A DNA stretch of 59,182 nucleotides from Clostridia bacterium (GTDB lineage: Bacteria; Bacillota; Clostridia; Oscillospirales; CAG-272). The first letter of the stretch is position 1, and each line of letters begins with the position of its first letter. The stretch spans positions 1 through 59,182 of the forward strand of contig JAFXHU010000005.1 in NCBI GenBank assembly GCA_017533565.1. Reading direction: 5' to 3'. Of this stretch, positions 1 to 59,070 are shown in pieces. Below the pieces are notes generated by a model. That model was not told the origin of the DNA. It worked only from the letters and a program-made list of their open reading frames with translations, and made no database searches. The translations under genes and the position numbers were made by a program.

Positions 1-227
1 ATCACGGCAGAGCCGTGTATATCATTGATGCGGAGCATCGTATATCATCAACGGCTTGCCGTTGTATATCATCATTGCGAAAGAGGATACAGCCTGTGGC
101 TGATGAGATACTCGCCTTGTCGAGATATACTCGGCAAGGCGGATGAGATACACGCTAAAGCGCGATGATATACCATTGCTTTCGCAATGGATAAAAAATT
201 CGACAAGTCGAAACTTGTCGAATTTTT
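1..227. repeat. Hairpin-array element, copy 1
   Basis: A chain of short palindromes joined by conserved linkers. In order: CACGGC-AGA-GCCGTG (3-17), a 6-bp stem closed by loop GGA (26-40), CAACGG-CTTG-CCGTTG, CAGCC-TGT-GGCTG, a long nested stem CGCCTTG/CAAGGCG with inner CGAG/CTCG, an ACGCT/AGCG stem, CCATTGC-TTTC-GCAATGG (173-190), and a perfect 15-bp stem AAAAATTCGACAAGT with loop CGAA (194-227). The first three linkers read TATATCAT(C/T). The later ones read GATGAGATA or GATGATATA, the complement, so the array is itself an inverted arrangement. A second copy lies at 58695-58924 in the same orientation. The element may extend left of the window. Minus-strand reading frames across it are judged incidental. 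Function unknown. Confidence 0.85.
194..227. terminator. Perfect 15-bp terminator-like hairpin at array end / tRNA 3' end
   Basis: Arms AAAAATTCGACAAGT (194-208) and ACTTGTCGAATTTTT (213-227) flank loop CGAA. It directly follows the CCA end of the minus-strand tRNA-Arg and gives a T-run on both strands, so it probably terminates the tRNA transcript. It is also the last hairpin of the repeat element. Confidence 0.7.
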
Positions 228-303
228 GGCCTACCCGATAGGATTCGAACCTACGGCCTTCAGAGTCGGAGTCTGACGCGCTATCCAGCTGTGCCACGGG
301 TAG
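227..303 (-). tRNA. tRNA-Arg (anticodon CCG)
   Basis: Read on the minus strand, a cloverleaf folds with acceptor CTACCCG/CGGGTAG, anticodon stem TCAGA/TCTGA and seven-base loop CTCCGAC, giving anticodon CCG (codon CGG, arginine). The T arm carries GGTTCGAATCC. Discriminator G is followed by an encoded CCA (229-227). The D stem has one apparent A-C mismatch. The 3' end abuts the terminator-like hairpin of the repeat element. Confidence 0.93.
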
Positions 304-5762: not shown

Positions 5763-5780
5763 CAATCCCGTTAAAGAAAA

Positions 5781-5936
5781 GATAGCACTCCGCAAAATGC
5801 GACAGCAGGGCGGATATTCTCCGAACTGCCAGCGGCCGCGTCCCACTGCGGCGACTTCGGCACTCACGCCTTTTTCGCATACCCCTTGGGGGAGTCCTTG
5901 CCTGCGATACTTTTCGTGGAGTGCGCCTCTATCAAG
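5781..5936 (-). promoter_or_regulatory. Lysine riboswitch (L box) aptamer
   Basis: On the minus strand the leader begins GATAGAGGCGCAC and closes with GGAGTGCTATC, forming P1. Between them are conserved L-box elements: AAAAGTA with GCAAGGACTCCCC, the stretch GCGAAAAAGGCGTGAG followed by GCCGAAGTC, then CTGGCAG and GGAGAATATCC. Length (about 156 nt) and order match the known lysine aptamer. It lies between a strong promoter and dapA, with a terminator next. Known L boxes switch off lysine genes when lysine is plentiful; the same is inferred here. Confidence 0.94.
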
Positions 5937-5956
5937 CATATTCCTTTGATAACGGT

Positions 5957-58694: not shown

Positions 58695-58924
58695 ATCACG
58701 CCCAAGGCGTGTATATCATCAAAACGAAGTTTTGTATATCACCAAGGCGAAAGCCTTGCATATCATCATTGCGAAAGAAGATACAGCCTACGGCTGATGA
58801 GATACTCGCCTTGTCGAGATATACTCGGCAAGGCGGATAATATCCACGACTGCGTCGTGATGATATACCATTGCTTTCGCAATGGATAAAAAAATTCGAC
58901 AAGTCGAAACTTGTCGAATTTTTT
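58695..58924. repeat. Hairpin-array element, copy 2
   Basis: Same order of hairpins and linkers as copy 1, same orientation. Stems: CACGCC-CAA-GGCGTG (58697-58711), CAAAAC-GAA-GTTTTG, CAAGGC-GAAA-GCCTTG, CAGCC-TAC-GGCTG, the nested CGCCTTG/CAAGGCG stem, CACGAC-TGC-GTCGTG, CCATTGC-TTTC-GCAATGG, and the final 15-bp stem AAAAATTCGACAAGT. Compared with copy 1, several stem bases differ on both arms so pairing is kept. It begins one base after the lipoprotein stop and would be its 3' untranslated region. Confidence 0.85.
58889..58924. terminator. Terminator-like hairpin closing array copy 2
   Basis: 15-bp (extendable to 16) perfect stem with loop CGAA and T-run. Probable terminator of the lipoprotein transcript. 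Confidence 0.75.
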
Positions 58925-58960: not shown

Positions 58961-59070
58961 GGGTTCATTTTGCAAAATGGGTTCACTTTTTATAGAAAAC
59001 GGGTTCACTTTTTATAGAAAACGGGTTCACTTTTTTTGCAAAAAATGGGTTCAAATTTAACGATAGGTTC
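58961..59070 (+). repeat. Iteron-like direct repeats GGGTTCA
   Basis: Six copies of GGGTTCA or close variants start at 58961, 58979, 59001, 59023, 59047 and 59065, with spacing 18, 22, 22, 24 and 18. Two are embedded in GGGTTCACTTTTTATAGAAA. They could be protein-binding sites such as a transposon end or a replication or partition site; the DNA to their right leaves the window. A perfect palindrome GTCTGCAGAC lies at 59080-59089. Confidence 0.75.

What the first reader, a model, noticed from the sequence alone, without database searches (positions are those of the whole stretch)
1..227. Two copies of a multi-hairpin element with compensatory stem changes
Copy 1 (1-227) and copy 2 (58695-58924) contain the same series of hairpins in the same order. 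Hairpin 1 swaps a G-C pair for C-G. Hairpin 2 (TGATGC versus CAAAAC arms) differs at four of six pairs, each matched on the other arm (one copy-1 pair is T-G). Hairpin 3 changes two pairs the same way. Loops and linkers are kept or vary only a little. Keeping pairing while the sequence drifts is the mark of selection on folding in RNA or DNA. I do not know this element under a name. It may be a structured 3' UTR or noncoding RNA, a BIME/REP-like mobile repeat, or a cruciform protein-binding array.
Basis: partly seen in the sequence, partly recalled or inferred. Interest (0 to 1): 0.85.

Follow-up and report, generated by a model that had tools for sequence, protein, structure and literature searches.

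The report
Hairpin arrays heading tRNA-end gene cassettes
Gut Clostridia carry a movable DNA element made of eight hairpins joined by a fixed 10-base linker; it lands right behind tRNA genes, often just upstream of small accessory genes, and may be part of an undescribed way of shuffling such genes.

Summary
In detail: both copies carry the same hairpins in order, with matched stem changes. They belong to a large family in Clostridia MAGs: 166 distinct arrays in 162 loci, 69 with one plan: hp1-L1-hp2-L2-hp3-L3-C-hp4-R1-hp5-R2-hp6-R3-hp7-hp8, linkers GTATATCATC (L) and its complement (R). All tested stems covary, and segment C covaries with hp7. G-U pairs are rare (0.7-1.8%; tRNA stems of the same loci 6.2%), which points to DNA, not RNA. 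Of 88 arrays with an hp8-side neighbour held, 55 have a tRNA gene there, all in one orientation, 27 anticodons. On the other side usually lies a gene running away from the array; hp1 often supplies its promoter's -35 box. Arrays are present or absent at orthologous sites. A four-helix-bundle gene lies 60-92 nt behind an array in eight loci; resolved neighbouring arrays are co-oriented (12 of 12). Best reading: a non-autonomous mobile palindromic module that heads small gene cassettes at tRNA 3' ends. It fails the REP/RAYT and attC-core tests, no mobilising enzyme was found, and seven paper searches found no description. Function and mobilisation are inferred; nearly all sequence comes from draft MAGs.

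The parts
1..227 (+). Copy 1 of the array, oriented hp1 to hp8; its hp1 end is the contig end
3..17 (+). copy 1 hp1 CACGGC-AGA-GCCGTG (its last G is also the first base of L1)
17..26 (+). copy 1 L1 GTATATCATT
27..39 (+). copy 1 hp2 GATGC-GGA-GCATC
40..49 (+). copy 1 L2 GTATATCATC
49..64 (+). copy 1 hp3 CAACGGC-TT-GCCGTTG
64..73 (+). copy 1 L3 GTATATCATC
74..83 (+). copy 1 segment C ATTGCGAAAG, complementary to the 3' side of hp7 (CTTTCGCAAT)
90..102 (+). copy 1 hp4
102..111 (+). copy 1 R1 GATGAGATAC
112..141 (+). copy 1 hp5 (long hairpin)
142..151 (+). copy 1 R2 GATGAGATAC
151..164 (+). copy 1 hp6
164..173 (+). copy 1 R3 GATGATATAC
173..190 (+). copy 1 hp7 CCATTGC-TTTC-GCAATGG
194..227 (.). 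copy 1 hp8, A-run/stem/T-run: terminator-like in both directions; directly behind the CCA of the tRNA
230..303 (-). tRNA-Arg(CCG), transcribed towards the array
58695..58924 (+). Copy 2 of the array, oriented hp1 to hp8
58697..58711 (+). copy 2 hp1 CACGCC-CAA-GGCGTG
58711..58720 (+). copy 2 L1 GTATATCATC
58720..58734 (+). copy 2 hp2 CAAAAC-GAA-GTTTTG
58734..58743 (+). copy 2 L2 GTATATCACC
58743..58758 (+). copy 2 hp3 CAAGGC-GAAA-GCCTTG
58758..58767 (+). copy 2 L3 GCATATCATC
58768..58777 (+). copy 2 segment C ATTGCGAAAG
58784..58796 (+). copy 2 hp4
58796..58805 (+). copy 2 R1 GATGAGATAC
58806..58835 (+). copy 2 hp5
58836..58845 (+). copy 2 R2 GATAATATCC (two mismatches to the consensus)
58845..58859 (+). 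copy 2 hp6
58859..58868 (+). copy 2 R3 GATGATATAC
58868..58885 (+). copy 2 hp7
58893..58920 (.). copy 2 hp8 terminator-like hairpin; no tRNA between this copy and the contig end
57119..58693 (+). 524-aa ORF ending 1 nt before copy 2; no Pfam family at E 0.001; similar DNA in L152 is parted from its array by about 1 kb with another ORF

Best explanation
A non-coding, non-autonomous mobile DNA module. Shown from sequence: a fixed plan of eight palindromes spaced by a conserved 10-bp linker that flips orientation in the middle; DNA-like (not RNA-like) pairing; presence or absence at orthologous sites; a position at the 3' end (CCA-A) of tRNA genes of 27 anticodons; a terminator-like hp8 that lies where the tRNA terminator should be; hp1 supplying the -35 box of the next promoter in a third of the copies tested; some cargo genes recurring behind arrays in different neighbourhoods; co-oriented neighbouring units. 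Inferred: (i) the unit [hp8 - array - promoter - small accessory gene] moves as a cassette, by an enzyme acting in trans that reads palindromes as single-stranded or cruciform DNA and/or the linker; (ii) hp8 replaces the tRNA terminator and the array insulates the cargo promoter; (iii) stems change quickly because arms are copied from each other or exchanged between arrays, so that cassettes recombine within arrays.
For: Plan: 69 of 166 distinct arrays (found in 162 loci) have linker order ---+++. Covariation in 66 of these 69 (L138 and L146 dropped as wrongly oriented, L018 as shifted): Watson-Crick fraction against arms dealt out among elements: hp1 .978/.728 (62 of 66), hp2 .952/.411, hp3 .988/.662, hp4 .981/.688, hp5 .934/.485, hp6 .899/.534, hp7 .958/.676, C:hp7 .938/.665; no shuffle reached the observed value (1000 shuffles; 2000). 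DNA-like: 8 G-T and 21 A-C among 1,207 pairs of distinct stems; tRNA stems 94 of 1,522 G-U (p 4e-16 and 4e-9). tRNA side: 55 of 88 arrays with a neighbour held (22 CDS-, 11 CDS+; 20 more at edges), 55 of 55 in one orientation, 47 within 70 nt, 27 anticodons; tRNAs are 14% of features in those loci (p 2e-25); 0 of 89 on the other side. CCA-A before hp8: 81 of 103, and 35 of the 56 without an intact tRNA called within 70 nt. Promoter: TATAAT-like box (<=1 mismatch) 16-18 nt behind NTGATT in 29 of 77 (31 of 108 could not be tested), 3.8 expected; TTGATT 27 of 40, GTGATT 2 of 37. Mobility: array at 7 of 30 tRNA-Arg(CCG) loci, the window's own included, plus 1 partial; an array between ybeY and era in the own genome (names), none in 19 relatives (18 measured; L247 by eye). 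Cassettes: L111 and L151, 91% identical from hp8 to past the cargo gene, different sequence before hp8; L068 and L147, 94%, different hp8; L033 and L070, 98.5% over 454 nt from the last linker on, different arrays. A four-helix-bundle (PF05635/TIGR02436) gene lies 60-92 nt behind an array in 8 of 8 loci with a near-identical open frame; four of the eight (L024, L069, L097, L101) have an intact tRNA upstream, of three kinds. Neighbouring arrays within 5 kb: 12 of 12 resolved pairs co-oriented, 10 of 22 unresolved, 3 of the 12 under 150 nt apart.
Against: No mobilising enzyme: no Y1 transposase in the own genome and no association in the genus; integrase genes rarely lie near arrays; reverse transcriptases are rare. 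No exact target duplication was defined, and no excised or circular form was looked for in reads. Part of the accessory genes may stand behind tRNAs only because tRNA genes are integration hot spots; a few are core-like (by eye: a ribosomal L13-like ORF in L112). Several arrays have no cargo gene in the expected place (window copy 2; 21 of 89 have a gene of the other orientation on that side). Cassette borders differ between pairs (before hp8, behind hp8, in the last linker), which fits general recombination as well as a specific system. A conserved motif at cargo ends, which I first took as a cassette border, stands before an array in only 6 of 32 places. Wobble counting stopped each stem at its first unpaired position and dropped wobble pairs at the inner end, which lowers the wobble count somewhat; hp8 itself has 3.9% G-U (48 of 1,224, chosen by RNAfold).
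Confidence: 0.5

Rival explanations
1. A BIME-like selfish palindromic repeat that inserts behind intrinsic terminators, tRNA terminators above all; the accessory genes are there only because tRNA loci are hot spots.
For: An array without terminator or tRNA lies inside the ybeY-era operon; module number varies; the tRNA-Gln gene and a gene next to it in the own genome lie 1.5-40 kb apart in seven relatives (coordinates); another repeat family takes the same slot behind the tRNA-Arg(CCG) terminator (L201, L203, L208, by eye).
Against: Near-identical cargo together with array and promoter in different neighbourhoods and strict co-orientation of resolved neighbouring units; hp1 feeding the cargo promoter.
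Confidence: 0.28
2. The array is the recombination (attP-arm or accessory) region of small islands integrated into tRNA 3' ends by a tyrosine integrase supplied in trans; the linkers are arm-type sites.
For: Position at tRNA 3' ends; tRNA 3'-end fragments before hp8 in arrays lacking a called intact tRNA (11 of 52 against 0.2 expected, though L065 and L108 read as intact tRNAs that my feature step missed); the only integrase found in the own genome lies 147 nt from an array with, by eye, 27 nt of a tRNA-Ser 3' end between, and L142 has an integrase on the same side.
Against: 1 of 30 fetched integrase loci of the genus has even a two-linker cluster, of atypical order (these are the best-scoring matches and leave out the own genome's, so the test is weak); array-rich G015 has no integrase match (71% complete); one hp8 sequence occurs next to tRNA-Arg (L004, L017, L025) and tRNA-Ser (L016, L024) genes, so the crossover is not inside the tRNA; both array-linked integrases also fit an ordinary island that split a tRNA already followed by an array.
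Confidence: 0.12
3. A structured RNA: 3' UTR, terminator cluster or regulatory RNA with a C/hp7 switch.
For: Strong folding; C and the hp7 5' arm compete for the same partner; hp8 looks like a terminator; hairpin clusters can act as terminators (PMC8355165, abstract seen).
Against: Few G-U pairs on either strand; the array lies behind a terminator-like hairpin and often upstream of the next promoter; no Rfam family at gathering score, only sub-threshold hits at E 0.015 and above in the copy 2 region.
Confidence: 0.08

Closest known systems
REP / BIME elements with RAYT transposases (PMC2817692, passages seen)
   Same: Short intergenic palindromes in mosaics with inverted orientation; palindromy kept by complementary changes; insertion polymorphism.
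   Different: No GTAG/CGTC tag at the hairpin feet tested (0 of 66); no RAYT association; a fixed eight-hairpin plan; tRNA 3'-end position; link to cargo genes.
Integron attC sites and gene cassettes (features recalled, not from a call)
   Same: Palindromic sites whose structure is kept while sequence varies; co-oriented neighbouring units with mostly single small genes.
   Different: 0 of 66 have an RYYYAAC...GTTRRRY core pair 40-150 nt apart (1.3 expected); the array lies upstream of a gene that often has its own promoter; integrase genes rarely nearby.
Tycheposons and other tRNA-integrated islands (PMC10872708, passages seen)
   Same: tRNA genes as anchor, accessory cargo, tRNA 3'-end fragments.
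   Different: That paper gives tycheposons as 4-200 kb with a tyrosine recombinase and 7 tRNA genes in Prochlorococcus; here units of about 1 kb, no recombinase seen in the unit, 27 anticodons.
Intrinsic terminator clusters (PMC8355165, abstract seen)
   Same: Hairpins in a row behind genes.
   Different: Conserved linkers, mirror-image plan, insertion polymorphism, few G-U pairs.

Membership tests
REP/BIME-RAYT | GTAG (or CGTC) tag at the foot of the palindrome | tested here: not met
   0 of 66 elements at the linker-side feet
REP/BIME-RAYT | cognate Y1 transposase (PF01797) in the genome | tested here: not met
   0 in own genome (77% complete); 6 of 22 array-bearing and 4 of 18 array-free genus genomes; no linker pair in 8 Y1 loci
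REP/BIME-RAYT | intergenic palindromes in high copy | tested here: met
   15 BLAST matches at 11 places in the own draft genome, up to 25 linker-pair matches per genus genome; lower bounds, below the >100 copies usual for REPs
Integron cassette | attC core RYYYAAC / GTTRRRY (recalled) | tested here: not met
   0 of 66
Integron cassette | integron integrase (IntI) next to the array | tested here: inconclusive
   Phage_integrase in 38 of 40 genomes, 1 of 30 fetched loci near a weak linker cluster; IntI subtype not tested
tRNA-integrated island | insertion at the tRNA 3' end | tested here: met
   55 of 88, one orientation
tRNA-integrated island | direct repeat of the tRNA 3' end at both borders | tested here: inconclusive
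   fragments before hp8 in 11 of 52 (2 of them intact tRNAs missed); L189 has an array piece between tRNA-Arg and a fragment of its 3' end (by eye); no exact att pair per unit
tRNA-integrated island | own site-specific recombinase | tested here: not met
   2 integrases in the array loci searched, both on the hp8 side, outside the array-cargo unit (one-sequence query, so divergent ones may be missed)
Rfam structured RNA | match at a family's gathering score | tested here: not met
   only a lysine riboswitch and the tRNA in the window

The most novel reading that the evidence does not exclude
An undescribed gene-cassette system of gut Clostridia: single small accessory genes, each headed by an eight-hairpin site, are inserted in tandem at tRNA 3' ends, with the site recognised as folded DNA by an unknown enzyme. 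It would be an integron-like system without integron parts that uses much of the cell's set of tRNA genes as docking points.
Probability: 0.27. Interest if true: 0.92.

Novelty: new variant of a known kind. Interest (0 to 1): 0.7.

Why it matters
If the cassette reading holds, a group of mostly uncultured gut Clostridia exchanges defence-like (TIR), regulatory and metabolic genes by a route that annotation tools do not see. Even under the selfish-repeat reading, the family is a clean natural case of DNA-level (not RNA-level) covariation, a caution for covariation-based RNA discovery, and a repeat that probably breaks metagenome assemblies.

Tried and rejected
Nested pairing of left and right linkers (a rod with four-way junctions, as the copy 1 fold suggests): linker variants do not covary (9 left-right combinations, two columns each, all Fisher p >= 0.05). 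Phage or plasmid carriage: no match in 50,697 phage and 72,556 plasmid records; 8 viral contigs held the linker pair, but the stretch between the linkers is not palindromic: 6 have no cluster of three linkers, L173 and L174 have one cluster of four same-way linkers each. RAYT mobilisation. Retroelement mobilisation: RVT_1 in 6 of 40 genomes, none in the own. Four-helix-bundle (IVP) gene as the mover: PF05635 is in 36 of 40 genus genomes with and without arrays, and 29 of its 30 fetched, best-scoring loci have no linker pair. A strand bias of wobble pairs (8 G-T, 21 A-C, p 0.02) comes mostly from hp6 and was not pressed. A first test of hp1 was one base out of register and gave 0.25; put right. 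Outliers: L087 (titled Bacillales), L104 (ANME-2) and L121 (Porphyromonadaceae) have clusters of 4-5 linkers, L091 (Butyrivibrio) and L153 (Lachnospiraceae) none of three; not followed. Papers: seven searches gave listings in which I saw no paper describing this element; four papers were opened (passages; abstract and outline).

Full report
The window is one complete contig (G000:C37) of a 1.71-Mb, 77% complete MAG. Both fold as single-stranded DNA with z below -10. The own genome gives 15 BLAST matches at 11 places (hp8 matches itself on both strands), several at contig ends, so copy number is a lower bound.

By record title 117 of the 120 are Clostridia or a clostridial family or genus, and 81 (the RGIG isolates) name a ruminant's gut. 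In the genus of the window 22 of 40 genomes hold linker pairs, up to 25 matches each, with none for the reversed control pattern. BLAST found relatives of copy 2 in 29 of 59 genomes, in 5 of 24 genera. No phage or plasmid record of the two collections matches.

In 162 loci there are 176 clusters of three or more linkers, 166 with distinct cores; 69 show the order ---+++. Read hp1 to hp8 the plan is AATCA-hp1-L1-hp2-L2-hp3-L3-C-hp4-R1-hp5-R2-hp6-R3-hp7-ATAAAA-hp8. I tested 66 of the 69 (L138 and L146 had been oriented backwards, L018 was shifted by one linker; hp1 could be read in 62). Pairing within elements is 90-99% against 41-73% when arms are dealt out among elements, with no shuffle reaching the observed value (hp7 over seven positions, one of them in the loop, 83% against 63%). 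The hp4 5' arm was placed by rule behind the last ATNC. Segment C pairs with loop plus 3' arm of hp7 over 10 bp (93.8% against 66.5%); C and the hp7 5' arm thus compete for one partner, and the minimum-energy DNA folds of the two window copies choose differently. Linkers vary little and their variants do not covary, so I take them as a sequence signal, perhaps a protein site, not as paired stems.

The kind of covariation is informative. Distinct stems (hp4 and hp8 left out) hold 1,178 Watson-Crick pairs, 8 G-T and 21 A-C. Acceptor and T stems of 128 of 130 distinct tRNAs from the loci hold 94 G-U among 1,522. Stems kept for RNA folding should pass through G-U; these rarely do. Folding as DNA, or a process that copies one arm onto the other, fits better. 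My stem count dropped inner wobble ends, so the gap is somewhat overstated.

Stems change fast and in blocks. L111 and L151 share hp8, hp7, hp4, hp1, promoter and a gene 93% identical as protein, yet hp2 and hp3 are replaced on both arms; L068 and L147 differ in the same way at hp6.

Context (108 arrays of the commoner orders): on the hp8 side, with 88 neighbours held, 55 are tRNA genes, all transcribed towards the array, 47 within 70 nt, 27 anticodons; the rest are 22 genes transcribed towards the array and 11 the other way. tRNAs make up 14% of features in these loci (the loci are enriched for tRNAs by selection, which makes the test conservative, but they are not fully independent). The sequence before hp8 is CCA-A in 81 of 103. 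On the other side, 68 of 89 genes run away from the array. hp1 ends in TTGATT or GTGATT; a TATAAT-like box 16-18 nt further on is found in 27 of 40 and 2 of 37 of these (29 of 77 in all, 3.8 expected; spacing 17 in 25 of 29). So in tRNA direction: tRNA - hp8 - array - promoter - gene.

The genes are mostly small and diverse. Of 41 listed I scanned 18: ten have a Pfam family (TIR, 23S_rRNA_IVP, YcxB-like, HAD, NUDIX, GH43, ankyrin, HTH, ADP-ribosylglycohydrolase, DegV), eight none (the TIR protein has weak Thoeris-type PADLOC matches). Others look like lipoproteins by eye. The best case of a repeated cargo is the four-helix-bundle (IVP) gene: by DNA in seven loci (L024, L069, L077, L097, L101, L103, L120), as a near-identical 114-115-aa open frame in eight (without L103, with L144 and L166), and in all eight an array lies 60-92 nt upstream. 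Neighbouring arrays within 5 kb are co-oriented in 12 of 12 resolved pairs; 10 of 22 pairs could not be resolved, and 3 of the 12 are too close for a gene between. In the own genome C22 carries array - TIR gene - array. A motif at cargo ends (...CACCTTTTNNCNGTTCTTTCGCAA) precedes an array in only 6 of 32 places, so it is no general border.

Presence and absence: 7 of 30 tRNA-Arg(CCG) loci of the genus, the window's own included, have an array right behind CCA, one has a piece, 22 have none, three of these with under 160 nt to look at. A four-hairpin array lies between ybeY and era in the own genome (gene names from NCBIfam). Of 19 relatives fetched none has an array there: 18 measured, 17 with no linker and L236 with one in 450 nt, L247 seen by eye. 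L233 and L234 have other DNA of about 200-270 nt in that place. DNA similar to the 524-aa ORF beside copy 2 lies, in L152, about 1 kb from its array with another ORF between (77% identity over 1,310 nt).

What moves it is open. REP tags, RAYT genes, attC cores, integrase genes and reverse transcriptases gave no support. The one integrase found in the own genome does lie beside an array with a tRNA-Ser 3' fragment between, but that also fits an ordinary island that split a tRNA already followed by an array.

Limits: nearly all drafts, no expression data, simple gene calling, no whole-genome comparison, and relatives that are not independent.

Noticed in passing
L018, L073, L076, L192 (linker AATGATGT), L033 (GATGAAATC), L097 and L151 (ATGATATCCGTTCC), L201, L203, L208 (GTGAATAGTGAAAAG): Other hairpin-linker arrays with different linkers stand behind terminator-like hairpins in related genomes; the studied family may be one of several.
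   Followed up: partly
L180, L185, L188, L189, L202 upstream of tRNA-Arg(CCG): 5' pieces of the tRNA (ending just behind the anticodon; in L188 ten bases later) lie upstream of the intact gene and in several cases run into a hairpin GCATACCGC..GCGGTAT.
   Followed up: no
L181, L185, L186, L187, L204 downstream of tRNA-Arg(CCG): Further copies of the tRNA 3' end, mostly with terminators, some with palindromes inserted in the T loop.
   Followed up: no
window 58962-59070; also L124, L126: Repeats of GGGTTCAC with A/T-rich spacers beside hp8 of arrays without a tRNA.
   Followed up: no
L028, L051, L061: A second palindrome (GGGAACCCCCAAAGCTCGGCAAGC...GGGGAACCCC) is inserted in the loop of hp7.
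   Followed up: no
40 genus genomes: 23S_rRNA_IVP genes (PF05635) in 36 of 40 genomes, up to seven each, many near contig ends; 0 of 14 control genomes.
   Followed up: partly
window 5775-5939, minus strand: Lysine riboswitch (Rfam RF00168, 83.5 bits).
   Followed up: no
L293:313-1170 (own contig C22): The TIR gene behind an array is followed at once by a 107-aa ORF; the gene may be split or the ORF separate.
   Followed up: no
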